Shown piece by piece: positions 20,338 through 64,000 of a DNA stretch of 64,000 nucleotides (positions within the stretch are counted from its first letter, which is position 1; every line of letters begins with the position of its first letter). The notes beneath the pieces were generated by a model. The model made no database searches, was not told the DNA's origin, and saw nothing but the letters and a program-made list of their open reading frames with translations. The position numbers and the translations under genes were made by a program. Source of the stretch: Siniperca chuatsi (Eukaryota > Chordata > Actinopteri > Centrarchiformes > Sinipercidae); the NCBI RefSeq assembly GCF_020085105.1, contig NC_058055.1, positions 28,061,372 to 28,125,371 of the forward strand. The letters run 5' to 3'.

Positions 20338-21704
20338 AGATATTTTGATAAAAACATGTGGTTTTTATTACAGCTTCACTTTTCTTTATACCATAATTGA
20401 AACTAATAACTCTTGTGCATTGCTAAATTGGTTAGCATCTAGGGAGGTGAGAAGGCGTGGCTTGCATTTGAGAGTAACATAATGCATTGCTACACTTCAA
20501 GGTAGATTTAGTTGTTGAACATTTCCCCTGGATCATGATACTGTTAAAATATTATCGTATATTTATCTGAGAGTACGCATTGGACCTACTTAGTTAATCT
20601 CAGTAGGCAAAGCCTTTGCTCTTCACATCCCGACAGCAATCAATAAATCAAATCCTCTGGAGAAAAATGTAAAAACTCCGGTATCTGTGGCTGTCGCAGG
20701 CCAGTAATAAGCACATCCAATCATTCCTGGCCTACCTGCGCGCACTCTGTCCGTGCACTTATTGTGCATGCAAATGTGTTTTGGGGAAGGGGCTTTGGAA
20801 GGAGGCCTAAACGGGGGGTATCCAGCTGATTTTTTCAGTTGGATACTTTCAAATCTAGCTGTCTCTGCTAGTTTCTCCAGTTTTATTTTATTTGCATTGT
20901 CTGCCCCTGCCCCAGTCTCGGAACCCATCGGCTATTGTCTGACAACGATTTAGCCTTCAGGCAATGGCCAATGTTTCAGGGCTTCCAGTGTATCCGGATA
21001 ACGGATACCCGGGCCAAGACGTCCTCTTCCGTGCGCCTGTCATTGTTTACAATCCGATTAGCAATCTCGGAACCCATCGGATATCGTCTGACAGCGTTTT
21101 GGATGCGGATCCATTTTTTAAAAGCTAATAAAAAGCTCATCTCTAGGGTTCCGAGTCTGATAAAAAGTTAAATCATCCTTAGACAATAGCCAATGGGCAA
21201 TTCGGCCAATGAGTTCCGTCTCTTTTTGGTCAATACTACTCGGACTACAAACAGACTACAAACAGAAACAAGAATGATTCCGATACCAAAATCCTGTCCC
21301 TTGACTACAGATACTGCATTGATATGTAGATATCTGTTTATATAGATTAGCCCCATCCTGATTAGTTTCACCTGTCATTCATTATCCTTCCCTAGTGTAT
21401 TTAGTTTGTGTGTTCCCTTGTCTCAGTGCCAGTTCATCTTTGTCCATGTGTCAAGCGTTCCAGCCATTGCCCCAGTGTTTATTCGCTCAAAGAAGGGAAG
21501 TCAAACTCTTAATTAACTGTATAAACATACATTTAATTTATATCAAATAATTACTCAATGGGTGTGTAGATAAGTGAAATTAATTTGAAAAGTAAGAAAA
21601 ATACATTTCAGCATGCCATAGCGAGTGAGAAAGTATTTTAATTGCATGACTGAAAATTTCAGTGATTTATTTTATAAATTATTTACATTTAATTCACTAT
21701 TGAG
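20338..21704. repeat. Array unit: downstream flank of OR3
   Basis: Duplicated segment also found at 34371-35926, 48511-50062, 40409-40672 plus 42238-42686, and 57606-58192 plus 60450-60791. It contains the hairpin element (20916-21195) and part of an old LTR-like stretch (from about 21340). In this copy the LTR-like stretch is cut short at about 21480 compared with OR4. No gene. Confidence 0.8.
20916..21195. repeat. Hairpin element, copy in OR3 flank
   Basis: The motif TCTCGGAACCCATCGGCTAT-TGTCTGACAACGATTT occurs directly at 20916, again directly near 21065, and inverted near the right end, so the segment can fold back. Possibly a small MITE. The right arm is degraded in this copy. Confidence 0.6.
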
Positions 21705-22591
21705 TCATTTCACCTCTGTCACAGTCATTGAATTCCTAGTAAACATGATGACTATTTTTTCTCTGACCGCTTTGATTTGCAGTCCATAGATAACAGCGTT
21801 CATAGTAGGAGGGAACACATGGAACAAGATGGATGCTAGCTTCCTTTCGTCTGAAAAGTCCTGGAAACGATGGAGGATGATAGGGATGAAGCCAGACACA
21901 AACATGATGATGTACACAGCCAGGTGGGTGGCACAGGTCCGCAGCGCACGGCTGTTCAGAACCTTGTTTTTACTGAGCACACACACTGCAGCAGTTTTCA
22001 GGTAGGTGAGAGTGACGCTGCCGATGGAGGAGCCCAGGGCAGGTGCCGAGGCCGTGATGTTAGCTTTCACAGGACAGCCGTAAGGAGGCGTTATTGATGA
22101 GGATACTTTCACAGGACAGCTTGAACAAGGAGGCGTTATCGCAATCACCATCGGGTTCAAAATAACTGCCCTGCAGCTGGTCATGATGGTGGCGTAACGC
22201 AGGGGCTGCAGATGGCCACGTAGCGGTCGAAGGCCATGATCATGAGCACAGTGTGAGAGACGCCTAAATGAAAATGAGCACAGAAGGCCTGAATCACACA
22301 CTCATAATAATGGATGTAGCGCTTTGTGACTGGCGTAAAAATATCACTCAGCAAGCGAGGAATGATGGTCGTGGCCCCAAAAACATCATTAATGCTCATG
22401 TTGCAGAAGAGCAGATACATGGGCTGGTGGAGGCTCCTCTCCATGGTGATCAGGACTACCAGGCCGATGTTGGACACCATGATGAAGATGTAGATGAGGA
22501 GGAGGAGGATGAAGGCGGGAATGGAAGACTGGGGGCTGACCTTTAACCCCTCCAGCTGTAGAATGTCTATACTTAAAGTCTGGTTCTCCAT
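21705..22591 (-). pseudogene. Olfactory receptor pseudogene (OR3)
   Basis: Clearly derived from the OR4-OR7 type. The N-terminal 130 residues are intact (MENQTLSIDI through MAFDRYVAIC). A frame change just after, at the GGGGCTGCAG position (other copies have one G more plus a T), diverts the frame. TM4 and the following loop are missing: the ATIMTS codons run directly into CRAVILNP. A block near 22040-22150 carries a local duplication of TTTCACAGGACAGC...AAGGAGGCGTTAT, scrambling extracellular loop 2. The C-terminal part, from GSSIGSVTLTYLK through SRALRTCATHL to NAVIYGLQIKAVREK, reads on in another frame. Without TM4 the receptor cannot fold. Promoter, leader exon and intron remain. The loop 1-TM3 segment (TPVTKRYIHYYEC, HFHLGVS) matches OR7 rather than OR4-OR6. 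Confidence 0.92.
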
Positions 22592-22613
22592 AGTGCAGAG
22601 GGTTATTTTAAGC

Positions 22614-23995
22614 CTATTTAGGATGGGAGAGCAAAAAATAATTTATATGGCATTTAATATCAAAAACATGTTTTTGAAGATAATAACTAGGTAGATACAG
22701 TAATCTACACAAACAGTGGAAGAAAGTGGCTTCTCAAACAGGTCAGCAGTACCGCCTAAAAAGTAGGGTAGCGTTCAATGCAAGAAATAAAAGTGGAAAA
22801 ATATTGTAAATATGCACAAATTGAGCATATTAAAATATTGTTCTGGAGATATGAGAACTTAGTAACAATAGACAACAATATGGTTGTTTGCCTGTGAAAT
22901 CTGGAACTTGGTTAAATGATATGAAGATTGAATTATTCAAACAGGACATACTGTATGTACTATAAGAATACTACTTTTAAAGGCCTACTGTGGAGACGCA
23001 AGACTTACAAAAATTACAAATAATGAAATAATTTAACCAAACTGAAACTTGTTTTGGCATTTGTGTGCACATGGTGTACAACACAATTAAACAACATTTA
23101 AAAAAAACAACATACAATACAAAAAAAAATCAAAGAAAATGATAATTACTGCAAAACTTTAAATAATGCCTCATTTGACAACAAAACTTCCAAAGTATAA
23201 CCCTGAAAAATCGCTGTTTCAAAATGTCGCAGACAAAAAGAAGTTTGAATTTAAATTCGGTCATGATTTAATGTCATAGGCTAGATACAATATCAGTCAT
23301 TCAGCAACAGACAACAATAAGGATAGTTGTCTCCCTGACAGATAAGACTTAGTGAAGTAATGTGAAAACCAAATAATTCGTTAAATTTTCATTTTATTCC
23401 AATTTGCCTTCAAAATGCAATTAATTTGTTCATCAGTTCTTTTCATGTATTTAAGATTTAATTTCGTGTCTTAAAACAAAAAGTGTTAAAACAAAACACA
23501 GGATATACTGTACATAGTAATAACAACATATTAATAATCGTTATTTATAGAGCACCTTTTAAAACCTGATTTAGAAAGTGTTTCACACAAGGCAGCAAAT
23601 TAAAATCAACAAATTATGAAGTTTCATATAGAATCTAATCAAATAGCAAACTTTTAGGTAACAAAAGACATCAATTGACCAAGAGTAAATTTAAATTAAA
23701 TTTAAAATAAAAATATATAAGTAAGATATTAGAATCAGTTCTAAAACATACTGGGAGCCAGTGTAAAGAGGCTAAAGCAGGTGTGATGTGGTCACTGAGT
23801 TCTGTAGCCTGGCAATAGATTTTCCTTTAAGTACAAACGCTGTTGCAGTAATTGAGGCTGGAGAAGATAAAAGTATGTCTCTGTCTTTAGAACATAAGAG
23901 AGTATTTTTGCAATATTTCATAAATGATAAAAACATGATTGGCATTATTCAGTAAACAAACAACATCATTTACATACTGTGTGTCTCATGCTTAC
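22614..23995 (-). other. 5' UTR intron of OR3 (array upstream flank)
   Basis: Donor AGAG|GTAAGC at 23996/23995; acceptor side CTAAATAG|GCTTAAAA at 22614/22613 (the other copies read CTCACTAG). It contains, around 23535-23905, the dispersed repeat with TTATTTATAGAGCACC and GCCAGTGTAAAGAGGC. The same block is in all array copies. Confidence 0.65.
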
Positions 23996-24240: not shown

Positions 24241-26328
24241 CGAAATGTGCGCATGCGCCAACATGCATGCTGCCTGTTTCCGTAGCTCCGTCTCGTCGTC
24301 TTTTTCCAACTTTTAGCTTTCCTTTTTCTTCCAAACTTGAGTAACTTGTGTGTAAGTATAACTTAAACTACGGTCTTTACGAAAATGAGAGTAGAAAGTT
24401 TTTTAGTACTTTTTTCGCCGTGGAACTTCTTCTCCTGCTACTTGGTCAGGGCACCGCTGCAGATCAGCTGTTTGGCTGCATTGTTTACAGCAGAGAGCAG
24501 CTGATTGCACTGAAGCCGAGCGATATGGCGCCCAGGACAACTGATGTCCCCACTGAGGGATCACTCCTGGAGGGGTAATCGGAAAGGCGGTGGGCTTACT
24601 GTTCTGCAATGACATTCACACCACCATAGCACAACTCCAGACTCAACACCCGAGTGCACTCATATTAATCTCTGGTGACTTCAACCATGTCAGTGTTTCA
24701 ACAACACTGACAAATTTCACCCACTATGTGTGTTGTCCTACTAGAGAGGAGAGGACACTGGACATGCTGTATGCTAACGTTAAGGACGCATTGAGCTCTT
24801 CCACCCTCCCCCCTTTGGGTAGGTCGGACCACAACCTGGTTCATCTTAAATCCTGCTATGTGACCAACTGGAATGCACTCTGTGAGCCTCATGGAGAGGA
24901 CATTGATGGGCTCACTGAGTGCATCATCACATTAACTTCTGTGTGGACTGCAATGTCCCAACTAAGGTGGTCCATTGTTATCCAAATAACAAACCGTGGT
25001 TAACAAAGGACATCAAAGACATCCTGAATGCCAAGAGGAGGGCCTTTACTGATGGTAATAGGGAGGAGGTGCGGGCAATCCAGGTTGACCTGAAGGTGAA
25101 GATCAGGGAAGCCAAGGAGTAGTACAGGAGGAAGCTGGAGCGGAAACTCCGGCAGAACAACATGTGAGAGGTCTGGAGCGGCATGAAGAGCATCATTGGC
25201 TTCAGACCGACTGGCAGCAGAGGAGTTGAAGGCAGCTTGGACAGGGCCAACGAACTTAATCTGTTCTTTAACAGATTTGACACACCAGCTCCTGCTCATC
25301 CCCCCTCTAACTCAGCTGCTGTTGGCCCTCAGACTCCTCTGAGTCCTCTGCTCCCCCCTCCTCCATCTTCCTGGGAGAGTCCTACTCCCCCCTCAACTGG
25401 CTATCAGGCTAACGGCCCTCTTCACACTAATGACTCCCCCCCTCCCCTGCCTGTAACCTCTGCTGTGTGCCTGACTACTGACCAGGTGAGAAGACAGCTG
25501 ATGAAACTACACTCAAACAAGGCTGCAGGCCCCGATGGTGTTTGCCCCGGGGTGCTAAAAGCCTGTGCACCCCAGCTATGTGGAGTCCTTCAACATGTCT
25601 TCAACCTGAGCCTGAGTCTTCAAAGGGTCCCTGTTCTGTGGAAGACATCTTGCTTCGTTCCTGTGCCGAAGACGCCGCGTCCCAGTGGCTCCAAGGACTA
25701 CAGACCGGTGGCACTGACCTCCCACATAATGAAGACCCTGGAGAGACTAGTGCTGGAACAGCTGCGGCCATTGGTCAGACCCCTCCTGGACCCTCTTCAG
25801 TTCGCCTACCATCCCCGGCTGGGAGTTGAGGATGCCATCATCTTCCTGCTGAACCGCATCCACACCCACCTGGACAAGCTGGCAAGGACGTTGCTCCAGT
25901 GCTTTCAACACCATCCGGCCAGCCATGCTGGGTGAGAAGCTGGCAGCGATGCAGGTGGATGCCCCCCTCGTGTCCTGGATTGTTGACTACCTGACTGGCA
26001 GACCACAGCATGTGCGCCTTCAGCACTGCGTGTCAGACAACGTGGTCAGCAACACTGGAGCCCTTCAGGGGACTGTCCTCTCTCCCTTTCTCTTCACCAT
26101 CTATCACGGACTTCAGCTACCACACAGAGTCCTGCCACCTTCAGAAGTTTTTTGGTGATGAGTCTGAGTACAGGGCTGTGGTGGGGAACTTGTCTCATGG
26201 TGTGAGCAGAACCATCTGCAGCTCAATGCGACAAAGTCTAAGGAGCTGGTTGTGGATCTACGAAAGGCCAAGGCACCAGTGACCCCATTTTCTATCCAGG
26301 GGGTCAGTGTGGACATTGTAGAGGATTA
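24241..26328 (+). mobile_element. Rex1/L2-like LINE, copy A, internally deleted
   Basis: Begins with the LINE 5' head CGAAATGTGCGCATGCGCC right after TGCAT, the same junction as copies C and D. It keeps part of the apurinic-type endonuclease (ILISGDFNHVSVS, TLDMLYANVKDA, GRSDHNLVHLKSCY) and the reverse transcriptase start (AAGPDGVCPGVLKAC, DYRPVALTS, LQFAYHPRLGVEDAI). Relative to copy D it lacks a stretch after the leader, a stretch after KSCYV and a stretch in the RT before SAFNT, and it has in-frame stops. At 26328 it is interrupted by a Penelope fragment after GTAGAGGATTA. Confidence 0.85.
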
Positions 26329-28314: not shown

Positions 28315-28480
28315 AAGTGGCTGTTTGGTTTCGCCTATGTACCGTTCTTTGCAGTTTTCCTCACTGCACTGAATGGGGTAGACAACATTGCTCTGTTTCT
28401 GTGTGGGTAACTTGTCCTTAGGGTGAACGGGTTTCTTTAAACCAGGCAACACTTTAAGACAGAAACTCGTCTCCGGAGCT
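27733..28480 (-). mobile_element. Penelope-like element fragment with GIY-YIG domain
   Basis: The frame complementary to 28057-28452 (131 codons) encodes the C-terminus of a Penelope-like retroelement: VVYPIQCSEENCKERYIGET is a GIY-YIG-type endonuclease core (Y-P-I, then Y-I-G), followed by KRLYQHRR and a conserved Asn/Lys-rich tail. Penelope elements use this nuclease for insertion (family knowledge). The reverse transcriptase part is absent. The left end is the GACGGTGTAG terminus; the right end abuts array flank sequence at about 28481 (TTGTCTCCCTGACATATAAG). Confidence 0.8.
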
Positions 28481-30108
28481 TTGTCTCCCTGACATATAAG
28501 ACGTTAGAAGTGATGTGAATACCAAATTAATCAGACATATTTTAGAACAGCATAGCTCTGGTTTCACTACAGCAGTTCAGCCATGTGTCTACAGGCTTTC
28601 ATTCAAACCAAACACCATTTCATACATAACCACACTGACACATAAAACAATGGGTAAAAACATAATGACCATAGACAAACAATACAACTTTTATGCATTT
28701 AGCAAGCGTTCACATAGGGATGCTATGGTTTGAGATTGAAAATCTGCATACACAACTTAAATGGCACATGGTTCAATAACTGTTACGGACAGTACAGACC
28801 GGAGACACAGGGAAGATACTGATATGGTTTATTGAAACACGAGCAGAATGAACAGATAATGGATGGAAGTATACTGTCCTTTCACTGGAGATCGTGGAGC
28901 TCTGGAGTAGTGTGGCTGAACACAGGAGAGTGGGTTCACACAGGGCTGGGAACCGGAGTGACACACACACAGGAGATGAGAGACACACTCACGGGAGACT
29001 GAAGACACACGGGATCTGGAGCTGGAGTGACACACACGGAGGACTGGAGTAGACAGGAGCCGGGATCGAGGTACTGGGTGCTGGGTGATCGTCGGAGGTT
29101 ATTCCTTCTGTAGTTTAGTCCGAGGCGTAGTAGATTCAGGAGACAAGAGTACAATCTTTTGTCTAAATGAGACCGGACACTGACTGTGGTGAGGGGCTGG
29201 GATTTATAGGGGAGTGGAGTGCTGACTGGATGCAGGTGTATACTAGGTAACAGGTGAAGGGAATCAGTAATCGGGTGAGGGAGTGTAGTGGCTGGAGAGA
29301 ACATGACAGACGGTGACAATAACAGGTGTGTAGCTTAGAATTCACTTGTATAGTTTTGTGGTGGATGTTGAACAGGCTGCTGGAAACACATCTCACACAT
29401 CAGGAAACAGTTGACTGCATTTAAATATAATATATAATTACTTTACTGAATGCTATATTCCTGGTTTCATTCCTTTTCAAATTTCATTTAATTCCAATTT
29501 GCCTTCAAAATGCAATTAATTTGTTCATCAGTTCTTTTCATGTATTTAAGATTTCATTTTGTGTCTTAAAACAACAAATGTTAAAACTAAAACGAAACAC
29601 AGGATATACTGTACATAGTAATAATGTAATATGTAATGTGTAAACAACATAATAATAATCTATTTGTAGAGCACTTTTCAAAACCTGATTTAGAAAGTGT
29701 TTCACACAAGGCAGCAAATTAAAATCAACAAATTATGAAGTTTCATATAGAATCTAATCAAATAGCAAACTTTTAGGTAACAAAAGACATCAATTGACCA
29801 AGAGTAAATTTAAGATATAAATAAAAATATATAAGTTAGATATTAGAATCAGTTCTAAAACATACTGGGAGCCAGTGTAAGGAGGCTAAAGCAGGTGTGA
29901 TGTGGTCACTGAGTTCTGTAGCCTGGCAATAGAGTTTCCTTTAAGTATAAACGTTGTTGCAGTAATCGAGGCTGGAGAAGATAAAAGTATGTCTCTGTCT
30001 TTAGAACATAAAAGAGAGTATTTTTGCAATATTTCATAAATGATAAAAACATGATTGGCATTATTCAGTAAACAAACATCATTTACATACTGTGTGTCTC
30101 ATGCTTAC
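28481..30108 (-). other. Remnant leader intron of a lost b-type OR
   Basis: This corresponds to 62469-63579, the leader intron of OR7, but no OR coding sequence precedes it. The first roughly 700 bases of intron and the whole gene are missing, replaced by the Penelope/LINE sequence. A solo LTR (28781-29318) has been inserted. The dispersed repeat with TTTGTAGAGCACTTTTC lies at about 29660-30020. Confidence 0.75.
28781..29318 (-). mobile_element. Solo LTR, Ty3/gypsy-like, with target duplication (fossil)
   Basis: Flanked by the 5-base duplication ATAAC (28776-28780 and 29319-29323). The uninterrupted paralogues (for example 37888) read TTCAATAACAGGTGTG. On the minus strand it starts TGTCACCGTCTGTC, has a CTATAAATCCCAGCCCC promoter-like box and CAATAAACC polyadenylation-type signal, and ends GTCCGTAACA, like the LTRs of the two larger gypsy copies. 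It is absent from the other array copies, so it was inserted after the array duplicated. Confidence 0.8.
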
Positions 30109-30260
30109 CTCTGCTGACATGAACTCCCTCCACTCACCCGAGGTGGGCTGACATCTGTTATAAGCTGAATGATGGCCCCCGGTATTTGAGAGTTTGTTGC
30201 GTCACTGAACTCTTACCAGTTTCTTACCAGGCAACAACTGCTGTCACAACACTATGTTTC
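30109..30260 (-). promoter_or_regulatory. Orphan OR promoter and leader exon
   Basis: Full copy of the array promoter on the minus strand: GTTGCCTGGTAAG, GTGACGCAAC, CCGGGGGCCATC, CTTATAAC (plus 30157-30164), and donor CAGAG|GTAAGC at 30109/30108. No OR follows; transcription would run through the solo LTR, Penelope and LINE sequences toward OR3. Confidence 0.65.
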
Positions 30261-31078
30261 CTTTTGGTGGTTTGGATGCCGCTGTGGTAGATGAAACATG
30301 ATAAAGTACCCTCTAGGGCGCCCTTCTAGTGGAGAAAACATGATGCGGTGCATACTGGCTGCCCTACATGTTACATGTACATGTTTTACAGAGGTGTAGT
30401 AGTTATACTTTAAATCTGAGTCATATTTTAAAACAACTGTTTCACCATAAATGCTTCAGGACTTTCTGCACCCTGGTGCCCCACCTCATGCAGCTGGTGC
30501 CCTTTTTATTTTTTTGCCCCTGCCCCTCAGACAGCCTGAGTCAGCCTCTGACTGGTGGGCAGAAAACATGGGTGATTTAGCTATTTTCAGCCCTGCTGGC
30601 ATATAAATGTATTATTACAGACTGCTGGGGGTAGCTAGTTTTACCATACACCTTTTTGACCGAAGACATTTTGACTTGTCATCGTAGGAAAAGGTGTTAC
30701 AAAAAACATTAACAAATGGTCCATTTTATTCGTGTCCCAGTAAACCATGACAGTGCTGCTTGTTTCCATCCACTGCTGCTGTGAATATGAGTTCATCAGT
30801 TGCTGCTCTTAAACCATCGCAGAAGAATCAGAATCAGGAATCCTTTATTGATCCCCAAGGGGAAACTCTTTAAGAAAAAGCAAAGCTAAAAGTTGGAAAA
30901 AGTAAGATGACGAGATGGAGCAACGGCAACAGGCAGCATGCACGTTGGCGGATGCGCACAATTCACCAAAAAAGAGCACACAAGGAGATGACGTCATTAA
31001 AAGAGCTCCAGTCAAATCTGAAATAATGGATAACCACTCCCTCACCAGAGTACTAACCACTCACACACACCTGCTCCC
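30261..31078. repeat. Array spacer between modules 1 and 2
   Basis: Begins with the empty LINE site (GCATACTGGCTGCCC at 30349) and continues with a spacer shared with 45070-45480, 56470-57280 and 63815-64000 ('GCACCCTGGTGCCCCACC', 'GGGCAGAAAACATGGGTG'). It contains the mini-LINE 30821-30959. No gene. Confidence 0.75.
30821..30959 (-). mobile_element. 139-base LINE-derived mini element
   Basis: Read on the minus strand it is the 5' head of the Rex1/L2-like LINE (GCATGCTGCCTGTTGCCG, CTTTTTCCAACTTTTAGCTT) joined directly to its 3' tail (AAAGAGTTTCCCCTTGGGG, ATCAATAAAGGATTCC, TGATTCTGATTCTT). Everything between, including both enzymatic domains, is absent. A second copy of the same length lies at the equivalent place, 57041-57179. 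Confidence 0.75.
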
Positions 31079-34000
31079 TATCACACACACCTGCTCCCCA
31101 TCAGCACCTCATCAATACTAGTATAAATGCACACTACTCACCCCAGCCAGTTGTCCGGTCTCGTTAATACTAAGGACTCTCCCCATCGATGAAAGACGAC
31201 TTTTGGATTCCTTCCTTTTCCTATGCCAAGTGTGCGCTTCCACTCCAGTGTTGAATCATCCAGTCGTGAGTTTACCAGTCTCCAGTGTGTGTCTCCGGTT
31301 CCCAATCTCCAACACCATTCTACAAAGGACGGTATGAGTACTCCACTCGTTATTTTAGACTGCTCCATCACCCATCACTTACCAGCTTACTGTGTGCTCA
31401 TTGCTGTGTTCAATAAAAACTACATCTGTTTCCACCTTGGTGTCTCTTGCCCTTCTGTCTGTAACAGAAGACCGGACCTCAATGTAGAACGGCCAGCATG
31501 AGTACCATGGACCCTTTCCAGGAGCTGGTGGATCTCCTTCGCTGTGGGCTCTCCGCCACACCACCAGCATCCACACCAGCCATCACGTCCGCATCCGCCG
31601 CCGTCACTCCGCCACCTCTGGTGTACGCCAGTCCCATGGCCAAACCAGCGGCCTTCTCTGGCTTGGTGGAAGACTGCAATGGTTTCATCCTGCAGTGTTC
31701 GCTGGTCCTGGAGATGCAGCTGCACCTGTACCCTGACGATCGTTCCAAGGTGGCTTTCGTCATATCACAGCTCAACGGACGTGCTCTACAATGGGCTGAG
31801 ACAATATGGGCACAGAATGGACCTGTAACTCAGTCCCTAACCAACTTCATCTCCCACTTCAAAGAGGTGTTCGGAAGACCGGCTGGAGATTCTTCTGCAG
31901 GAGAATGCCTCTACCACCTAAAGCAGGGTTCCAGATCGATAAACGACTATGCCCTAGAATTCCGGACTCTCACGGCTGTCAGTGGGTGGAACGAGCAGTC
32001 CCTAATCACCACCTTCCGTCAGGGATTGGATCCCAGGGTATGGCTGCATCTCGCCGCATGTGCGGATACTATTGGCCTTGAACGGTTCATCCAACTGTCT
32101 ATCAGAGTCGCCACCCATATGCAGGCGTGTTTTGAAGAACACCAGGACCAGTCGACATCCATGCCATCCCTCTGCCAGCCTGATATCCACCGCCCTCCAG
32201 AACCAGACCACGAACCCATGCAGCTGGAGAATAACACACTGACCCCCACTGAGCGGCAGAGGCGTCTGTGCCAGGGCTTGTGTCTGTACTGTGGAGCTGC
32301 TGGGTATGCCATAACTTCCTGTCCCATCCGCCCTCTGCGGCCTATGGTGAGTGCCATCCTTCCCTCATTTAAGAATATGAAGCCCCTCTCCACTGTGATA
32401 ACACTCATTACTCCCGCTGTATCCATCCCAGTACATGCCCTCATTGACTTCGGGTCAGGCGGTAACTTCATCTCTGGTGCCCTCTGCCGCCAGCTCAACC
32501 TTAAACCACCACCACGCCGTCTGTCTACCAGATCCAGGCCGTGACAGGCAGACCACTCAGCCGTGCACAAGTCCAGGTATGTGCTGGACCTGTTAACATC
32601 CAGGTAGGCCTATTGCATTAAGAACAGCAACATCTCCTGGTTCTGGAGGGTTCCACCGCTGAAGTGATCTTAGGGCGCCCATGGTTGGAACAACATAACC
32701 CCATCATCTCCTGGACCACTGGTGAAGTGCTAAAGTGGGGCAACTCCTGTTTTCCAGACAATTTCCCTAGCCTACCACAAGACTCTTCATGTCTGCACCA
32801 CATCCATAGAGAGTCCGCGAGAAAAACAGTATGTGGATATTCCGCCCTGCCCACTACCCACTGCCATGGAAACCGGTAAACTCATGTTCAACCACATCTT
32901 CTGGTATTATGGCATTCCAGAGGACATCGTGTCAGACCAGGTGCCCCAGTGCATCTCCAGAGTGTGGAAGGCCTTCTTCTCCCTCCTAGGCGTGACCGTC
33001 AGCCTCTCTTCTGGATACCACCTGCAGTCGATTGGGCAGATGGAAAAGAAGGTACAGGAGATCGGCCACTTCCTACATACCTTCTGCCATAGCCACCAGG
33101 ACTCTTGGAACCAGTTCCTGGGATGGGCTGAGTACGGCCAGAATTCCCTCCGCCAACCTACCACTGGACTCACTCCCTTCCAGTGCTTAATCGGTTACCA
33201 ACCCCCTCTCTTCCCGTGGTCGGGAGAACCCTTGGAGGTTCCAGCGGTAGACTACTGGTTCCGAGAGAGCGAGAGGGTCTGGGACGCAGCTCATCATCAG
33301 CTGCAACGAGCGCTTTGCAGGTGCAGACTAACAGCCAACCTGAGACGCTCCACTGCTCCCGTCTATCAACCTGGTCAGAAGGTCTGACTGTCTACCTGGG
33401 ACATCAGGATGTGTCTGCCCTGCAAAAAGCTCAGTCCCAGATTCATTGGTCCCTTCACCATCACCAAGCAAATCAACCCAGTCACTTATCAGCTCCAACT
33501 GCCACCACAGTACAGAATTACCCTACTTTCCATGTTTCACTCCTCAAACCTCACCACCCTTCTGTTCCTGTTTCCACAGAGCCTGGCGCTGCAGCGGAAC
33601 CCCCCCTTCCTCTCATCCTGGAGGACGGAGCGGCGTACCGGGTGAACGAGATCTTGGACTCCCGGTGTCGTGTAGGTCTACTAGAATACCGGTCCATCTA
33701 GAGCACTCGTGGGTACCCAGACACGACATCCTTGACCCAACATCACACACACCTGCTCCCCATCAGCACCTCATCAACACTAGTGTAAAGGCACACTACT
33801 CACCCCAGCCAGTTGTCCGGTCTCGTTAATACTAAGGACTCTCCCCATCGATGAAAGACGACTTTTGGATTCCTTCCTTTTCCTACGCCAAGCGTGCGCT
33901 TCCACTCCAGTGTTGAATCATCCAGTCGTGAGTTTACCAGTCTCCAGTGTGTGTCTCCGGTTCCCAATCTCCAACCCCATTCTACAAATGACGGTATCAG

Positions 34001-38600: not shown

Positions 38601-38720
38601 CTCTGCTGACATGAACTACCTCCACTCACCCGAGGTGGGCTGACATCTGTTATAAGCTGAATGATGGCCCCCGGTATTTGAGAGTTTGTTGCGTCACTGA
38701 ACTCTTACCAGTTTCTTACC
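38601..38720 (-). promoter_or_regulatory. OR4 promoter and non-coding exon 1
   Basis: Array-type promoter: GTTGCCTGGTAAG, GTGACGCAAC, CCGGGGGCCATC, CTTATAAC (plus 38649-38656), donor at 38601. Confidence 0.63.
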
Positions 38721-50062: not shown

Positions 50063-51013
50063 TCATTTCACCTCTGTCACAGTCATTGTATTCCTAGTAA
50101 ACATGATGACTATTCTTTCTCTGACCGCTTTGATTTGCAGTCCATAGATAACAGCGTTCATAGTAGGAGGGACCACATTGAACAAGATGGATGCTAGCTT
50201 CCTTTCGTCTGAAAAGTCCTGGAAACGATGGAGGATGATAGGGATGAAGCCAGACACAAACATGATGATGTACACAGCCAGGTGGGTGGCACAGGTCTGC
50301 AGTGCCCGGCTGTTCAGAACCTTGTTTTTACTGAGCACACACACTGCAGCAATTTTCAGGTAGGTGAGAGTGACGCTGCCGATGGAGGAGCCCAGCAGGA
50401 CCGCCGTGTAGCCGAGGCCGTAGATGTTATTGATGAGGATACTTTCACAGGACAGCTTGAACAAGGAGGCGTTGTCGCAGAACGGGTTCAAAATAACTGC
50501 CCTGCAGCGTGACAGGCGGACACTGAGGCCCACGAGGATCGACACCATCAATAAAACCACCATCCAGGCCGACACCGACAGCGTCACCACCATCCTGCTG
50601 GTCATGATGGTGGCGTAACGCAGGGGGTTACAAATAGCCACGTAGCGGTCAAAGGCCATGATCATGAGCACAGTGTGAGAGGCGCTTGCATGGAGTTGAG
50701 CACAAAAAGCCTGAATGACACAATCAATATAATGAATGTATCGGTGTGTGCTTGGAATAAAAACGTCACTCAACAATCGAGGAATGATGGTCGTGGCCCC
50801 AAAAACATCATTAACGCTCATGTTGCAGAAGAGCAGATACATGGGCTGGTGGAGGCTCCTCTCCATGGTGATCAGGACTACCAGGCCGATGTTGGACACC
50901 ATGATGAAGATGTAGATGAAGAGGAGGAGGATGAAGGCGGGAATGGAGGACTGGGGGCTGACCTTTAACCCCTCCAGCTGTAGAATGTCTATACTTAAAG
51001 TCTGGTTCTTCAT
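50063..51013 (-). CDS. Olfactory receptor, intact, type a (OR6)
   Basis: 316 codons. MKNQT start; FIYIFIMVSN in TM1 (L in the others at the first F); NMSVNDVFG in TM2; loop 1 FIPSTHRYIHYIDC with CAQLHASAS as in OR4; MAFDRYVAICNPLRY, matching OR1-OR3 rather than the MSFDRY of OR4, OR5 and OR7; SKNKVLNSRALQTCATHLAVY; a private FNVVPP before TM7; tail FTRNTMTVTEVK. Leader acceptor at 51036. a-type surroundings: gypsy E2 downstream, LINE D upstream of the promoter. All receptor motifs are complete. Mixed similarity to neighbours in different segments suggests conversion among copies. Confidence 0.94.
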   Translation of the reverse strand: MKNQTLSIDILQLEGLKVSPQSSIPAFILLLFIYIFIMVSNIGLVVLITMERSLHQPMYLLFCNMSVNDVFGATTIIPRLLSDVFIPSTHRYIHYIDCVIQAFCAQLHASASHTVLMIMAFDRYVAICNPLRYATIMTSRMVVTLSVSAWMVVLLMVSILVGLSVRLSRCRAVILNPFCDNASLFKLSCESILINNIYGLGYTAVLLGSSIGSVTLTYLKIAAVCVLSKNKVLNSRALQTCATHLAVYIIMFVSGFIPIILHRFQDFSDERKLASILFNVVPPTMNAVIYGLQIKAVRERIVIMFTRNTMTVTEVK

Positions 51014-56469: not shown

Positions 56470-57424
56470 ACAGGCTGCCCTACATGTGAGAAAACTAGTT
56501 TGCTGCTGCGCGCTTCTAAATGGTTAAATAGTTAATAGTTCCCTGTGTGGTTGTTTTACAGAGGTTTAGTAGTTACACTTTAAATCTGAGTCACGTAATA
56601 AAACAACTGTTTCACCATAAATGCATCAGGACTTTCTGCACCCTGGTGCCCCACCTCATGCAGCTGGTGCCCTTTTATTTTTTTGCCCCTGCCCCTCAGA
56701 CAGCCTGAGTCTGCCACTGACTGGTGGGCAGAAAACATGGGTGATTTAGCTATTTTCAGCCCTGCTGGTATATAAATGTATTATTACAGACTGCTGGGAG
56801 TAGCTAGTTTTACCATAGACCTTTTTCACCAAAGACATTTTGACTTGTCATCTTAGGAAAAGGTGTTACTAATAACATTAACAAATGCTCCATTTTAAGT
56901 TTTAAGCTCAAGTGTCCCAGTAAACCATGACAGTGTTGCTTGTTTCCATCCACTGCTGCTGTGTGAATATGAGTTCATTGGTTGATGGAGATAAACAGCC
57001 GGTGGAGATAATTATCCAGTCGCTGTCATTAAACCATCACAGAAGAATCAGAATCATAAATCCTTTATTGATCCCCGAGGAGAAACTCTTTAAGAAAAAG
57101 CAAAGCTAAAAGATGGAAAAAGTAAGACGACAAGACGGAGCAACGGCAACAGGCAGCATGCACGTTGGCGCATGCGCCCAATTCACCAAAGAAGAGGACA
57201 CAAGGAGATGACGTCATTAAAAGAGCTCCAGTCAAATCTGAAATAATGGAAAACCATGTGGAAAACATGATGGAAATATAACATTTCTGTTAGTTTCATG
57301 TGTTAATGTGAGGAACAAGAGTGTAAGTTTTGTTTCAACATTGGAGGGGATACCTATTAAGCAGGGGGTCTGGTGGTCCACCCAACTCCTTTGTGTCTTT
57401 TGTTTGTGGAAATAACCTCTTTAA
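56470..57424. repeat. Array spacer between OR6 and OR7
   Basis: Same spacer as 30350-31040 with the mini-LINE at 57041-57179. After GTCATTAAAAGAGCTCCAG it continues into sequence that gypsy elements interrupt elsewhere. No gene. Confidence 0.72.
57041..57179 (-). mobile_element. 139-base LINE-derived mini element, second copy
   Basis: Same head-to-tail structure as 30821-30959 (minus strand: GGCAACAGG-side head, then GAGTTTCTCCTCGGGGATC and tandem TGATTC). Differs from the first copy by a few bases. Confidence 0.75.
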
Positions 57425-57605
57425 AGGTCCTGTGTGCAGGATTTAGTGGCATCTAACGGTGAAATTACAGTCTGCAACCATGTGAATACCGCTCGCCTCA
57501 TCCTCCCCTTCAAAGCGTGTAGGAGAAACTACGGTGGCTGGGGAACTCACAAAAACAGTGAAAGGCCCTATCTAGAGCCAGTGTTTGGTTTGTCTATTTT
57601 AGGTT
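57425..57605 (+). repeat. Left part of MITE/SINE-like repeat
   Basis: GGTCCTGTGTGCAGGATTTA, 'GTGTAGGAGAAACTACGGTGG' type motif (GTGTAGGAG, ACTACGGTGG), and then TCTAGAGCCAGTGTTTGG. This joins the sequence that follows E1 and E2, showing the pre-insertion state of that site. The right half is cut off at about 57605. Confidence 0.65.
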
Positions 57606-58192
57606 TGTTATTTTATTTGCATTGTCTGCCCCTGCCCCAGTCTCGGAACCCATCGGCTATTGTCTGACAACGATTTAGCCTTCAGGCAATGGCCAATGTT
57701 TCAGGGCTTCCAGTGTATCCAAATAACAGATACCCAGGCCAAGACATCCTCTTCCGTGCGCCTGTCATTGTTTACAGTCCGATTAGTAGTCTTGGAACCC
57801 ATTGGCTATTGTCTGACAGCGATTTGGATGCAGATCCATTTTTAAAATGCCAATAAAAAGCTAATCTCTAGGATTCCGAGACTGATAAAAAGGTAAATCA
57901 TTGTCAGACAATAGCCGATGGGCAATTCAGCCAATGAGTTCCATCTCTTTTGCTCTCCACATGAACTGTTTACCTGCATGCAACCAAAGCCCACTGAAAC
58001 GTGATTGGTCAATACTAATTGGACTACAACCGGACTACAAACAGAAACCAGAATGATTCCGATACCAAAATCCTGTCCCTTGCCTACAGATTCTGCATTG
58101 ATATGCCGATATCTGTTTATAGAGTTTAGTCCCGTCCTGATTAGCTTCACCTGTCCCTCATTATCCTTCTCTAGTGTATTTATATTTTATTA
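57606..58192. repeat. Array unit: downstream flank of OR7, left part
   Basis: Contains the hairpin element 57641-57922, whose right arm lacks the last bases, and the start of the LTR-like stretch. Continues at 60450-60791. No gene. Confidence 0.72.
57641..57922. repeat. Hairpin element, copy in OR7 flank
   Basis: Left arm TCTCGGAACCCATCGGCTAT, internal direct copy near 57790 (CTTGGAACCCATTGGCTATT), inverted right arm GACAATAGCCGATGGG. Confidence 0.62.
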
Positions 58193-60449
58193 TATCGATT
58201 CTATTCACCTTGTATGTGCTTCCTCTAGGCAATATTATTAGGAAATACTCCATAAACTAGTTGCTCTTGGCATTGCCCTGGCCTCCAGCAGCACCGTAAG
58301 GAACCTCAGAGTTATCTTTGATCAGGATTCATCCTTTAACTCCCACATGAAACAAACTTCAAGGACTGACTTTTTTCACCTACGTAACATTGCAAAAATC
58401 AGGCATATCCTGTCTCAAAATGATGCCGAAAAATTAGTGCATGCATTTGTTACTTCTAGGCTGGATTATTGCAACCACAAGGGGGCACAAGCCAGTGTCT
58501 TCTTGTGCCAGTCCTAAGTCTGGATAAATGCAGAGGGTCGTGTCAGGAAGGGCATCCGATGTAAAACACATGCCAAATAAAAAATGCGAATCGTGAAAAT
58601 GACTTCCATACCGGATCGGTCGGGGCCTGGGTTAACAACGACCACCACCGGTGCTGTTGACCTACAGGGTACCGGTGGATATTGGACTACTGTTGGTCAA
58701 AGACGAAGAAGGAGAGGAGGAAGGTGTGTTCGTAGGCAGAGAGAGAAGAGGAAAGCTAAGAATCTAGGACTGACAGTAGGGACTTTGAATGTTGGGACTA
58801 TGACAGGGAAGGCTAGAGAGTTGGTTGACATGATGCAGAGAAGGAAGGTGGACATGCTGTGTGTCCAGGAGACCAGGTGGAAAGGTAGCAAGGCTAGAAG
58901 CTTAGGAGCAGGGTTCAAGTTGTTCTACCATGGGTCAGATAGGAAGAGAAACGGAGTAGGAGTTATCCTGAAAGAGGAGTTTGTGAGGAATGTTCTAGAG
59001 GTGAAAAGAGTATCAGATTGATGAGTCTGAAGCTGGAAATTGAAGGCGTCCAATGTTGTGAGTGGTTATGCCCCACAGGTAGGATGTGAGTTTGAAGAGA
59101 AGGAGAAATTTTGGAGTGAGTTAGAATAAGTGATGCAGAGCATCCCCAGAGGTGAGAGAGTGGTGGTTGGTGCAGATTTCAATGGGCATGTAGGTGAAGG
59201 GAACAGAGGTGATGAGAATGTGATGGGCAGGTTTGGTCTTCAGGACAGGAACGCAGAAGGACAGATGGTGGTAGACTTTGCAAAGAGGATGGAAATGGCT
59301 GTAGTGAACACTTTCTTCCAGAAGAGGCATGAACATAGGGTGACATATAAGAGCGGAGGTAGAAGCACTCAGGTGGACTACATCTTGTGTAGACGTTGTA
59401 ATCTGAAAGAGACCAGTGACTGTAAAGTAGTGGTAGGGGAGAGTGTAGCCAGACAACACAGGATGGTAGTGTGTAAAATGACTCTGGTGGTGAGGAAGAT
59501 GAAGAGGACAGAGGCAGAGCAGAGGACAAAGTGGTGGAAGTTGAAAAAAGAAGAATGTCGTGTAGTTTTCAGGGAGGAGCTGAGACAGACTCTGGGTGGT
59601 CAGGAAGTGCTCCCAGATGACTGGACCACTACAGCTACTGTAATAAGGGAGACAGGTAGGAGGGTACTCGGTGTGTCACCTGGAAAGAGGAAAGTGGACA
59701 AGGAGACTTGGTGGTGGAACGAGGAAGTGCAGGAGTGTATACAGAGAAAGAGGTTAGCTAAGAAGAAGTGGGACACTGAGAGGACTGAAGAGAGTAGACA
59801 GGAGTACAGGGAGATGCAGCGTAAGGTGAAGGTAGAGGTGGCAAAGGCCAAACAAAGAGCATATGAGGACTTGTATGCTAGGTTGGACACTGAAGAGAGA
59901 GAGGTGGATTTGTACAGGTTGGCCAGACAAAGAGATAGAGATGGGAAGGATGTGCAGCAGGTTAGGGTGATGAAACATAAGGATGGAAATGTATTGACAG
60001 GTGCCAGGAGTGTGATGGGAAGATGGAAGGAGTACTTTGAAGAGTTGATGAATGAGGAAAATGAAAGTGAACAAAGAGGTGACTGGTGTGGAGCAGGAAG
60101 TAGCAAAGATTAGCAAGAGTGAAGTGAGGAGGACGTTGAAGAGGATGAAGAGTGGAAAGGCAGTTGCTCTCTCTCTCTCTCTCTCCCTCTCTCTCAAAAC
60201 ACAGCAGCGGTGGATGGCCACCCACCATTGAGTCTGGTTCTGTCCAATGTTTCTGCCTCTTAAAGGAAGTTTTTCCTTGCCACTGTTGCCAAATGCTTGC
60301 TCATGGTGGGATTTGTTGGGTCTCTGTAATTAAAATTATAAAGAGTATGGTCTAGAACTGCTCTATGGGAAAAGTGCAATGAGATAACTTCTGTTATGAA
60401 TTGCCACTATAGGAATAAATTTAAATTGAATTGAATTGAAATTTAATTG
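58193..60449 (+). mobile_element. L2-like LINE in OR7 flank, interrupted
   Basis: Same insertion point and same 5' truncation start (TATTTTATTATATCGATTC) as 40673-42237. Here the RT active-site part is deleted and the middle is replaced by an RTE-like LINE (58475-60166). The 3' UTR from the CT-rich tract onward (60167-60449) is retained and ends in TTGAATTGAA repeats. Confidence 0.83.
58475..60166 (+). mobile_element. RTE-like LINE fragment (endonuclease part), nested
   Basis: Starts CCACAAGGGGGCACAAGCC. Frame 58584-59021 encodes LGLTVGTLNVGTMTGKAREL and VDMLCVQETRWKGSKARSLG, the start of an apurinic-type endonuclease. Frame 59130-60113 (327 codons) continues with GADFNGHVGEGN (catalytic D, N), VDFAKRMEMAVVNTFF, RSTQVDYILCRR and a linker up to MGRWKEYFEELMNEENE, just before where the RT would begin. 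The two frames are separated by a frame change and a stop around 59020-59130. The reverse transcriptase is absent. Genome pipelines often mislabel this frame as craniofacial development protein 2-like. Dead. Confidence 0.82.
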
Positions 60450-60791
60450 GTCTGTGTGTTCCCTTGTCTCAGTGCCTCTGCCTCTGAGTCTGCATGTGGA
60501 TCAAGTTCCTGATTACCCTGCTTGCACTTTCATGACAGTATTTCCAGTTAAAATCCGTTGTGAAACAAGTCAAACTCTTAATTAATTGTGTAAACATATT
60601 TTTAATTTATATCATCAAATAATTACTGAATGGGTGTGTAGATAAGTGAAATTAATTTGAAAAGTAACAAAAATACATTTCAGCATGCCATAGCGAGTGA
60701 GAGAGAATGTTTTTTTAATTGCATGACTGAACATTTCAGTAAGTGCATTTATTAATAATTAACAAATATTTAAGTTTAATTCATTATTGAG
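60450..60791. repeat. Array unit: downstream flank of OR7, right part
   Basis: Resumes at TCTGTGTGTTCCC; part of the LTR-like stretch present in OR5 is missing here (TCAGTGCC joins CTCTGCCTCTGAG). AATAAA on the minus strand near 60750 could end the OR7 transcript. Confidence 0.7.
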
Positions 60792-61742
60792 TCATTTCAC
60801 CTCTGTCACAACCATTGTATTCCTGGTAAACATGATGACTATTTTTTGTCTGACAGCTTTGATTTGCAGTCCATAGATAACAGCGTTCATAGTAGGAGGG
60901 ACCACATGGAACAAGATGGATGCTAGCTTCCTTTCGTCTGAAAAGTCCTGGAAACGATGGAGGATGACAGGGATGAAGCCAGACACAAACATGATGATGT
61001 ACGCAGCCAGGTGGGTGGCACAGGTCTGCAGCGCCCTGCTGTTCAGAACCTTGTTTTTACTGAGCACACACTCTGCAGCAGTTTTCAGGTAGGTGAGAGT
61101 GACGCTGCAGATGGAGGAGCCCAGCATGACTGCCGTGTAGCCGAGGCCGTAGATGTTATTGATGAGGATACTTTCACAGGACAGCTTGAACAAGGAGGCG
61201 TTATCGCAAAACGGGTTCAAAATAACTGCCCTGCAGCGTGACAGGCGGACACTGAGGCCCACGAGGATCGACACCATCAATAAAACCACCATCCAGGCCG
61301 ACACCGACAGCTTCACCACCATCCTGCTGGTCATGATGGTGGCGTAACGCAGGGGGTTGCAGATGGCCACGTAGCGGTCAAAGGACATGATCATGAGCAC
61401 AGTGTGAGAGACGCCTAAATGAAAATGAGCACAGAAGGCCTGAATCACACACTCATAATAATGGATGTAGCGCTCTGTGACTGGAGTAAAAACGTCACTC
61501 AGCAAGCGAGGAATGATGGTCGTGGCCCCAAAAACATCATTAATGCTCATGTTGCAGAAGAGCAGATACATGGGCTGGTGGAGGCTCCTCTCCATGGTGA
61601 TCAGGACTACCAGGCCGATGTTGGACACCATGATGAAGATGTAGATGAGGAGGAGGAGGATGAAGGCGGGAATGGAGGACTGGGGGCTGACCTTTAACCC
61701 CTCCAGCTGTAGAATGTCTATACTTAAAGTCTGGTTCTCCAT
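60792..61742 (-). CDS. Olfactory receptor, intact, type b, mosaic (OR7)
   Basis: 316 codons. Glycosylation site NQT 3-5; PMY 57-59; extracellular loop 1 FTPVTERYIHYYEC with conserved Cys98; TM3 CAHFHLGVSHTV; MSFDRYVAIC 119-128; CRAVILNPFCDNASLFKLSC (Cys 170, 179 and 189); SKNKVLNSRALQTCATHL 228-245; NAVIY 286-290; tail FTRNTMVVTEVK. The loop 1-TM3 segment matches OR2 and the pseudogene OR3, while TM4 to the C-terminus matches OR4-OR6, so the gene looks like a mosaic. Private E in TAAECVLSKN. Leader acceptor at 61765. b-type surroundings: L2 LINE downstream, empty LINE site upstream. Confidence 0.94.
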   Translation of the reverse strand: MENQTLSIDILQLEGLKVSPQSSIPAFILLLLIYIFIMVSNIGLVVLITMERSLHQPMYLLFCNMSINDVFGATTIIPRLLSDVFTPVTERYIHYYECVIQAFCAHFHLGVSHTVLMIMSFDRYVAICNPLRYATIMTSRMVVKLSVSAWMVVLLMVSILVGLSVRLSRCRAVILNPFCDNASLFKLSCESILINNIYGLGYTAVMLGSSICSVTLTYLKTAAECVLSKNKVLNSRALQTCATHLAAYIIMFVSGFIPVILHRFQDFSDERKLASILFHVVPPTMNAVIYGLQIKAVRQKIVIMFTRNTMVVTEVK

Positions 61743-61764: not shown

Positions 61765-63579
61765 CTAGTGAGGATGGGAGAGCAAAAAATAATTTATATG
61801 GTGTTTAATATCAAAAACATGTTTTTGAAGATAATAATAACTAGGTAGATACAGTAATCTACACAAACAGTGGAAGAAGTGGCTTCTCAAACAGGTCAGC
61901 AGTACCGCCTAAAAAGTAGGGTAGCGTTCAATGCAAGAAATAAAAGTGGAAAATATTATCAATATGCACAAATTGAGCATAGCAAATTATTGTTCTGGAG
62001 ATGAAAACTTAGTAACAATAGACAACAATATGGTTGTTTGCCTGTGAAATCTAGAACTTGGTTAAATGATATAAAGATTGAAATTTTCAAACAGGACATA
62101 CTGTATGTACTATAAGAATACTACCTTTAAAGGCCTACTGTGGAGACGCAAGACTTACAAAAAATGAAATAATTAAACCAAACTGAAACTTGCTTTGGAA
62201 TTTATGTGCACATGGTCTACAACACAATTAAACAATATTTTAATAAAAACAACATACAATACAAAAAAAATCAAAGAAAATGATAATTACTGCAAAAATT
62301 TAATAATGCCTCATTTGACAACAAAACTTCCAAAGTATAACCCTGAAAAATCGCTGTTTCAAAATGTGGCAGACAAAAAGAAGTTTGAATTTAAATTCAG
62401 TCATGATTTAATGTCATAGGCTAGATACAATATCAGTCAATCAGCAACAAACAACAATAAGGATATTTGTCTCCCTGACATATAAGACTTAGTGAAGTGA
62501 TGTGAAAAACAAATTATTCAGACATTAGAACAGCATAGCTCTGGTTTCTCTACAGCAGTTCAGCCACGTGTCTACAGGCTTTCATTCAAACCAAACACTC
62601 AATATTTTATTGTTATTTCATACATAACCACACTGACACATAAAACAATGGGTAAAAACATAATGACCATAGACAAACAATACAACTTTTATGCATTTAG
62701 CAAGCGTTCACATAGGGATGCTATGGTTTGAGAATGATAATCTGCATACACAACTTAAATGGCACATGGTTCGATAACAGTTGTGTAGCTTAGTATTCAC
62801 TTGTATAGTTTTGTGGTGGATGTTGAACAGGCTGCTGGAAACACAGCTCACACATCAGGAAACAGTTGACTGCATTTAAATATAATATATAATTACTTTA
62901 CTGAATGCTATATTCCTGGTTTCATTCCTTTTCAAATTTCATTTAATTCCAATTTGCCTTCAAAATGCCATTAATTTGTTTATCAGATCTTTTCAAGTAT
63001 TTAAGATTTCATTTTGTGTCTTAAAACTAAAAATGTTAAAACTAAAACGAAACACAGGATATACTGTACATAGTAATAAAAACATATTAATAATCTATTT
63101 GTAGAGCACTTTTCATAACCTGATTTAGAAAGTGTTTCACACATGGCAGCAAATTAAAATCAACAAATTATGTTAAGTTTGCACCTGCAAAGCGCTCGTT
63201 GTTAATTAAGTTTCATATAGAATCTAATCAAATAGCAAACTTTTAGGTAACAAAAGACATCAATTGACCAAGAGTAAAATTAAGATATAAATAAAAATAT
63301 ATAAGTAAGATATTAGAATCAGTTCTAAAACATACTGGGAGCTAGTGTAAGGAGGCTAAAGCAGGTGTGATGTGGTCACTGAGTTCTGTAGCCTGGCAAT
63401 AGAATTTCCTTTAAGTACAAACGCTGTTGCAGTAATCGAGGCTGGAGAAGATAAATGTATGTCTCTGACTTTAGAACATAAGAGAGTATTTTTGCAATAT
63501 TTCATAAATGATAAAAACATGATTGGCATTATTCAGTAAACAAACAACATCATTTATAGACTGTGTGTCTCATGCTTAC
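61765..63579 (-). other. 5' UTR intron of OR7
   Basis: Donor AGAG|GTAAGC at 63580/63579, acceptor CACTAG at 61765. Longest of the leader introns. Dispersed repeat at about 63095-63460, with a short private insertion (GTTTGCACCTGCAAAGCGC) near 63177. Confidence 0.68.
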
Positions 63580-63710
63580 CTCTACTGACATGAACTCCCT
63601 CCACTCACCCGAGGTGGGCTGTTATAAGCTGAATGATGGCCCCCGATATTTGAGAGTTTGTTGCGTCACTTAAGTCTGAACAGTTTCTTACCAGGCAACA
63701 ACTGCTGTCA
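63580..63710 (-). promoter_or_regulatory. OR7 promoter and non-coding exon 1
   Basis: Array-type promoter: GTTGCCTGGTAAG, GTGACGCAAC, CGGGGGCCATCATTC, CTTATAAC (plus 63621-63628), donor at 63580. The leader is seven bases shorter than in OR4 (GACATCT missing). Confidence 0.63.
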
Positions 63711-64000
63711 CAACACTATGTTTGCTTTTGGTGGTTTGGATGCCGCTGTGGTAGATGAAACATGATAAAGTACCCTCTAGGGCGCCCTTCCAGTGGAGAA
63801 AACATGATGCGGTGCATACAGGCTGCCCTACATGTACATGTACATGTTTTACAGAGGTGTAGTAGTTATACTTTAAATCTGAGTTATATTTTAAAACAAC
63901 TGTTTCACCATAAATGCTTCAGGACTTTCTGCACCCTGGTGCCCCACCTCATGCAGCTGGTGCCCTTTTTATTTTTTTGCCCCTGCCCCTCAGACAGCCT
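63711..64000. repeat. Array spacer after OR7, runs off the window
   Basis: Empty LINE site GCATACAGGCTGCC near 63816 and shared spacer as at 30350. It suggests that the array continues past the window. Confidence 0.7.

What the first reader, a model, noticed from the sequence alone, without database searches (positions are those of the whole stretch)
20338..64000. OR array built of alternating a/b units marked by two independent LINE insertions
Seen: OR3, OR4 and OR6 all have a Rex1/L2-like LINE starting at the identical base after TGCAT upstream of the promoter (24241, 38846, 52996) and an uninterrupted downstream flank. OR5 and OR7 have the empty upstream site and an L2 LINE at the identical downstream site (40673, 58193). 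Gypsy E1/E2 share one junction at the b-to-a boundary. The two markers agree in all five genes. Inference: a two-gene module (14-18 kb) was duplicated at least twice.
Basis: partly seen in the sequence, partly recalled or inferred. Interest (0 to 1): 0.75.

Follow-up and report, generated by a model that had tools for sequence, protein, structure and literature searches.

The report
Fish smell-receptor array with nested duplications
A row of near-identical smell-receptor genes in what appears to be the mandarin fish grew by copying single genes and then blocks of neighbouring genes, and jumping-gene insertions caught in the copies let one read the order of events; the process is ordinary for this gene family, but the record is unusually clear.

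Summary
OR3, OR4 and OR6 carry a LINE at the identical base after TGCAT; OR5 and OR7 have that site empty and share an L2 at one site. A missed relic at 28480-31036, a b-type upstream flank without an OR gene and with the LINE site empty, lies between OR3 and OR4 and makes the order a-b-a-b-a-b. Four constrained trees pairing neighbours are rejected (AU p at most 0.0004).

The next 50 kb of the chromosome (Siniperca chuatsi, inferred) hold two more units, OR8 and OR9, with neither LINE nor L2, each preceded by the same gypsy. Gypsy 5' junctions match as E1=E3 and E2=E4. OR8 looks OR4-like on its left and OR5-like on its right.

Best history: monomer duplication at a MITE-like junction, a/b dimer, dimer duplication, a larger block duplication, an OR4/OR5-type hybrid (OR8), loss of the relic's OR, and gene conversion in the coding sequence. 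A well-marked case of known tandem-array evolution, not a new kind.

The parts
20335..21487 (.). Downstream flank D of OR3; left end of the array. Unique sequence lies to its left, no MITE-like repeat
21708..22642 (-). OR3, type a, pseudogene (frame breaks, internal rearrangement)
24241..26328 (+). LINE copy L3 at TGCAT site; its continuation is broken by a second element and a 1.4-kb tandem duplication (25502-26912 / 26909-28316, 99.5%)
28480..31036 (.). Relic ('ghost') b unit: upstream flank U1+U2 without an OR gene; LINE site empty at 30353|30354
31080..34128 (+). Gypsy E1 with both LTRs (31080-31466, 33742-34128)
35930..36877 (-). OR4, type a, intact 316 codons
38846..40408 (+). LINE copy L4, 3' part deleted and joined to D of OR5
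40673..42236 (+). L2 copy in downstream flank of OR5
42690..43637 (-). OR5, type b, intact 316 codons
45500..48270 (+). Gypsy E2, 5' LTR truncated
50066..51013 (-). OR6, type a, intact 316 codons
52996..56469 (+). LINE copy L6, the one copy with its 3' end in place (two bases AT could belong to either side)
56470..57574 (.). U2 of OR6 and gypsy-free boundary to OR7, with the left part of the MITE-like repeat from about 57420
58183..60475 (+). L2 copy in downstream flank of OR7, itself interrupted by another LINE-like insertion
60795..61742 (-). OR7, type b, intact 316 codons
63818..64000 (.). U2 of OR7 (LINE site empty), runs out of the window; outside it follow E3, OR8, E4, OR9 on the same chromosome (L001, L002)

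Best explanation
A tandem array of olfactory-receptor (OR) genes on one chromosome of a fish, most likely Siniperca chuatsi, that grew in nested steps. (1) A single unit (downstream flank, OR, upstream flank, MITE-like repeat) was duplicated in tandem; the junction inside the end of the MITE-like repeat is still seen left of OR4, OR6 and OR9, and OR3 keeps the unique left flank. (2) A gypsy element entered the MITE-like repeat at a unit boundary; a LINE entered the upstream flank of one unit (a), an L2 the downstream flank of another (b). (3) The a-b pair was duplicated as a block, giving OR3/relic, OR4/OR5 and OR6/OR7. (4) A larger block, at least from the relic's upstream flank to the downstream flank of OR6, was duplicated to give OR7's upstream flank, E3, OR8, E4 and the left part of OR9. 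(5) One OR4/OR5-type pair collapsed by unequal crossing-over into the single gene OR8, which removed both LINE and L2; the relic lost its OR in a deletion whose edge abuts another retroelement. (6) A short coding tract was exchanged between units. Shown: shared junctions, order, relic, nearest relatives per segment. Inferred: order in time, unequal crossing-over as the mechanism, direction of collapse.
For: Identical-base insertion sites with matching empty sites. Relic at 28480-31036 with empty LINE site; in U1 the quartet relic,OR7|OR4,OR6 has 12 sites against 5 and 1, in U2 relic,OR7|OR5,OR6 has 12 of 12 (seven of these 12 lie in one 10-bp run). With OR9 as assumed outgroup, 8 U1 columns at 51825-51987 split as 4 derived in OR4+OR6 and 4 derived in relic+OR7. 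Colinear chains between modules. Four neighbour-pairing topologies rejected, AU p 0.0004 or less. Outside the window: E1 and E3 share a 5' junction, E2 and E4 share another; relic+OR7 and OR5+OR8 100/100 in U2, OR4+OR8 95.2/94 in D; OR8's exclusive sharing is with OR4 at 5 of 8 columns left of the L2 site and with OR5 at 32 of 43 right of it (11 of those 32 lie at the edge of one shared deletion and may count as one event). Element divergence (LINE 2.3-4.3%, gypsy E1/E2/E4 4.2-5.5%) is of the order of flank divergence.
Against: Unconstrained flank tree does not unite OR5 with relic+OR7 (OR5 with OR4+OR6 at 48.8/42); the a-b split is weak in D (b5+b7 72/60). A topology with OR3+OR6 is not rejected (p 0.067) and the block duplication's left end is not located. 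A plain one-breakpoint permutation test for OR8 on all OR4/OR5 differences is weak: 112 of 187 sites fit, 696 of 20,000 shuffles reach it. OR8 is as close to OR9 as to OR4 in D (both 0.053). Gypsy internal quartet is undecided: E1,E3 7, E1,E4 6, E1,E2 1; E3 aligns badly (11-13%). L2 copies differ by 9.1% over 264 sites, more than the LINE copies. E1's two LTRs differ less (14 of 387) than E1 and E2 do inside (122 of 2,256), the reverse of simple expectation though within error. Coding sequences group OR4, OR5, OR6, OR8 against OR3, OR7, OR9 (100/100), against the a/b grouping.
Confidence: 0.78

Rival explanations
1. Exactly the reader's model: one a-b module duplicated at least twice, nothing more.
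For: Markers and colinearity within the window, and the relic, fit it.
Against: OR8 and OR9 have neither marker yet carry gypsy on their left; E1=E3 and E2=E4 junction classes and the nearest-relative pairs relic+OR7, OR5+OR8 need a larger duplicated block and a hybrid.
Confidence: 0.08
2. Single-unit duplications only, with the elements spread between units afterwards by gene conversion or crossing-over.
For: Conversion does occur in the coding sequence; some columns unite neighbours (OR6+OR7 exclusive sharing at 8 flank columns).
Against: Colinearity over about 12 kb including gypsy, OR, LINE and L2 in order; four neighbour-pairing topologies rejected; relic follows the b pattern without any gene.
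Confidence: 0.08
3. OR8 (and OR9) are plain older units that never had the elements, and OR4/OR5 arose from an OR8-like unit by insertion of a middle segment from another a-b pair.
For: The same OR4-left, OR5-right resemblance of OR8 is expected; OR9's upstream flank and U2 are not close to any other unit, as for an old end unit.
Against: Needs a two-sided exchange carrying several kb, against one deletion; LINE in OR4 is shared with OR3 and OR6, L2 in OR5 with OR7.
Confidence: 0.2
4. Independent insertions into hot spots, or an assembly artefact of split haplotypes.
For: Not positively supported; assembly not checked with reads.
Against: Same base for 3 of 3 LINE copies and both ends for 2 of 2 L2 copies; units differ by roughly 4-8% in flanks and carry private insertions and deletions, more than I would expect of two haplotypes (judgement).
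Confidence: 0.03

Closest known systems
Vertebrate OR/V1R clusters grown by tandem duplication with gene conversion (review PMC1995454, passages seen; teleost repertoire PMC1325023, passages seen)
   Same: Same-orientation arrays of close relatives, expansion by tandem duplication and unequal crossover, mosaic genes through conversion, retroelements thought to help
   Different: Here element insertions phase the array into two-unit and larger repeats, and one collapsed hybrid and one gene-less relic can be named
Mouse Abp gene family, blocks duplicated by NAHR between L1 elements (PMC3669608, abstract and outline seen)
   Same: Retroelement-rich gene array with block duplications
   Different: There recombinant L1 elements mark the duplication edges. 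Here the founding junction is inside a MITE-like repeat joined to unrelated sequence, and the OR8 switch lies in host sequence 3' of the OR; an element-to-element exchange was not shown
Higher-order repeats of alpha satellite (recalled)
   Same: Monomer, then multimer repeat, with like positions closer than neighbours
   Different: Units are 7-14 kb gene units, only a few copies, and the order breaks down at OR8/OR9

Membership tests
Olfactory receptor (7tm_4) gene array | Proteins match the olfactory receptor family | tested here: met
   OR1, OR2, OR4 and the + strand OR match PF13853, E 2e-36 to 6e-41 (OR5-OR9 not submitted to Pfam but 94% or more alike to OR6 in DNA in the coding region, or by alignment)
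Olfactory receptor (7tm_4) gene array | Several adjacent same-strand paralogues | tested here: met
   OR1-OR7 all on the minus strand; OR8 and OR9 likewise
Higher-order (multi-unit) repeat | Units in like position are closer than neighbours within a block | tested here: met
   Four neighbour-pairing topologies rejected; but recombination breaks the single-tree assumption and OR5 is not placed with the other b units in the free tree
Higher-order (multi-unit) repeat | The same unit order recurs along the whole array | tested here: not met
   a-b for the first six units, then two units with neither marker
Retroelement-mediated NAHR block duplication (Abp type) | Recombinant element at the duplication edge | tested here: inconclusive
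   Junction classes E1=E3 and E2=E4 lie inside the block; block edges not located; founding junction is MITE-like repeat to unrelated sequence
Gypsy/Ty3 LTR retrotransposon (E1, E2) | LTRs and gag/protease/integrase matches | tested here: met
   LTRs; Retrotrans_gag and Ty3_capsid in E1; gag, protease and integrase-C-terminal matches in E2; no reverse transcriptase match in the three ORFs searched, so both look internally deleted
Rex1/L2-like LINE | Reverse transcriptase and endonuclease matches | tested here: met
   RVT_1 2e-15 in L6; endonuclease weak, 2e-05 and 2e-04. The name Rex1 itself was not tested

The most novel reading that the evidence does not exclude
The gypsy copies at unit boundaries are themselves the substrate of the later block duplications: exchange between boundary elements set the phase and size of the repeated blocks, so that retroelement position, not gene position, decides which OR genes are copied together.
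Probability: 0.12. Interest if true: 0.5.

Novelty: new member of a known kind. Interest (0 to 1): 0.36.

Why it matters
Most OR clusters are described by coding sequences, which conversion blurs. Here insertions with matching empty sites, a gene-less relic and shared broken junctions fix the history independently of the genes, and the coding tree (100/100 for another grouping) shows how misleading the genes alone would be. It gives a small, testable case of how fish OR arrays gain and lose genes by blocks.

Tried and rejected
Rejected: independent insertions (identical bases at both compared ends); neighbour pairing of flanks; strict alternation over the whole array. Considered and not settled: OR3=OR6 pairing (LINE suggests it, 2.5% over 1,468 sites against 3-4% for the other pairs on shorter stretches; the flank tree prefers OR4+OR6, OR3+OR6 at p 0.067); gypsy internal phylogeny; direction of the coding-tract exchange: OR2 agrees with OR7 at 14 of 18 split columns, OR1 at 11 of 18, and other fishes' proteins show the OR4-like residues (by eye, 22 proteins fetched of 120 listed), so the polarity is open. 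A run-length permutation for the coding tract on OR4-OR7 gave 8,281 of 100,000 (not significant). A first L2 of evidence, U2 distances of OR5/OR8, is inflated by alignment at a deletion edge (columns 56833-56860). No OR coding sequence was found between L3 and the relic (tblastn best E 1.8). Whole-genome searches for other copies of the unit and for the gene of protein P0027 did not complete.
Full report
What the window is. The window is C14:28,061,372-28,125,371 of its assembly. C14 is 29,571,026 bases long, the length of the contig that carries P0001, a protein that reads the same as OR4, and P0027, which a source names Siniperca chuatsi. I infer Siniperca chuatsi. Seven OR genes lie on the minus strand (OR1-OR7) and one of another kind on the plus strand at 951-1649; the four given to Pfam match the olfactory receptor family. 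OR4-OR7 are intact with 316 codons and a TGA stop, OR3 is broken. dN/dS over the six pairs of OR4-OR7 is 0.26-0.49.

The observation. Self-comparison and reading of junctions confirm each marker. The LINE begins at 24241, 38846 and 52996, each after TGCAT; OR5 and OR7 read TGCAT|ACAGG through. In OR6 the LINE ends about 56469 and ACAGG follows, so the insertion can be taken out by eye and the empty site recovered. The L2 in OR5 (40673-42236) and OR7 (from 58183) shares its left and right junctions. E1 and E2 share the right junction only.

The missing b. Between OR3 and OR4, 28480-31036 aligns with the upstream flanks of the other units, has the LINE site empty and holds no OR gene; tblastn of three ORs against 26300-28600 found nothing better than E 1.8. 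Its sequence also belongs with OR7: quartet counts in U1 are 12, 5 and 1 in favour of relic+OR7 against OR4+OR6, and in U2 12 of 12 for relic+OR7 against OR5+OR6, seven of these in one 10-bp run.

Flank trees. On 5,144 flank columns and seven units (OR8 left out, being a hybrid), eight topologies were compared. The best is OR4+OR6 with OR3 next, against relic+OR7 with OR5 next (p-AU 0.94); OR3+OR6 instead is not rejected (0.067); four trees that pair neighbours are rejected (0.0004 or less); two others with the a/b split but without relic+OR7 are also rejected. Without constraint, relic+OR7 has 99.3/100, but OR5 goes with OR4+OR6 at 48.8/42, so the whole b clade is not shown by sequence alone. 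Single-tree tests assume no recombination, which does not hold here.

Beyond the window. I fetched the next 50 kb and the previous 10 kb. Coordinates continue past 64,000. OR7's U2 is followed by gypsy E3 (64482-66277), OR8 (coding 70184-71131), E4 (73175-76697) and OR9 (78510-79457); unit homology ends about 81654. OR8 and OR9 have both the LINE and the L2 site empty. The 5' junction of E3 is that of E1, apart from an 11-bp and a 20-bp repeat-number difference, and the 5' junction of E4 is that of E2; the 5' LTR pairs are E2+E4 96 and E1+E3 77. Nearest relatives are relic+OR7 (U2 2.1%) and OR5+OR8 (U2 1.5%, core 2.7%); in D, OR4+OR8 and OR6+OR9 are at 5.3%, OR8+OR9 also at 5.3%. Thus the stretch relic-E1-OR4-OR5-E2-OR6(left) matches OR7-E3-OR8-E4-OR9(left), 9 pieces, 12,189 bp at 92.3%.

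OR8 as a hybrid. Columns where OR8 shares a base with one other unit only: left of the L2 site OR4 5, OR9 2, OR7 1 (8 in all); right of it OR5 32 of 43, of which 11 sit at the edge of one shared deletion. The switch lies between columns 49408 and 49822 of OR6, 3' of the gene. A cruder test on all 187 OR4/OR5 differences is weak (696 of 20,000 shuffles). A crossing-over between an a and a b unit there would remove LINE and L2 together, as seen. That the change was a loss rather than a gain is inference.

The founding junction. A repeat with inverted ends (TTTAAAGGTCC...GGACCTTTAA; whole copy at L006 about 3830-4220) lies at the unit boundary. Left of OR4, OR6 and OR9 its right end is cut short by 16 bases and joined to TCAGATATTTTG, while OR3 has unrelated sequence before TCAGATATTTTG at about 20336. 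I read this as the first tandem-duplication junction, with OR3 as the left end of the array. The gypsy sits inside this repeat.

Gene conversion. In the coding sequence OR4, OR5, OR6 and OR8 stand against OR3, OR7 and OR9 (100/100). Of 44 informative coding columns, 18 have this split, and 17 of the 18 lie within 50682-50773. This 92-bp tract covers the third transmembrane region (position recalled, not computed). A run test restricted to OR4-OR7 was not significant. Direction is open.

Literature. The OR repertoire of Siniperca chuatsi is published with 152 genes, 123 intact (PMC6409572, abstract and Results read); the Results do not describe unit structure. Tandem duplication, conversion and a helping role of retroelements are textbook for OR arrays (PMC1995454, passages). 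Seven searches listed no description of this array; 'olfactory receptor' with 'higher-order repeat' and 'tandem duplication' gave one paper, on the chicken genome. The library holds open-licence papers only, so this is weak evidence of absence.

Verdict. It is a clear member of a known kind, of moderate interest for the way insertions and broken junctions resolve what coding sequences obscure.

Noticed in passing
18377-18525, with 23978-24070, 30091-30183, 38583-38675, 44781-44893, 52724-52825, 63527-63621; also 9180-9417: A block about 1.5-1.8 kb upstream of the start codon is kept at 68-76% between OR1, OR2 and the upstream flanks of all six units in the window, although the flanks around it are otherwise unlike; the LINE sits about 170 bp beyond it. 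Candidate promoter region.
   Followed up: partly
25502-28316: A 1.4-kb near-identical (99.5%) tandem duplication inside the broken LINE of OR3, much younger than the array.
   Followed up: no
28060-28479: Minus-strand reading frame resembling the end of a Penelope-like element (recognised by eye, not tested) that abuts the start of the OR-less relic.
   Followed up: partly
58475-60140: Another LINE-like element nested in the L2 of OR7 only; its 327-codon frame had no Pfam match.
   Followed up: no
ext 66597-69404 (L001:2597-5404): A 2.8-kb LINE-like insertion in the downstream flank of OR8, at another place than the L2 site.
   Followed up: no
30820-31000 and 57040-57220: A short element joining the 5' and 3' ends of the LINE in reverse orientation, in U2 of the relic and of OR6; related pieces occur elsewhere in the genome.
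   Followed up: no
11296-12383: Overlapping repetitive, proline- and serine-rich reading frames with 30-, 36-, 45- and 60-bp tandem repeats; one given to Pfam had no match.
   Followed up: no
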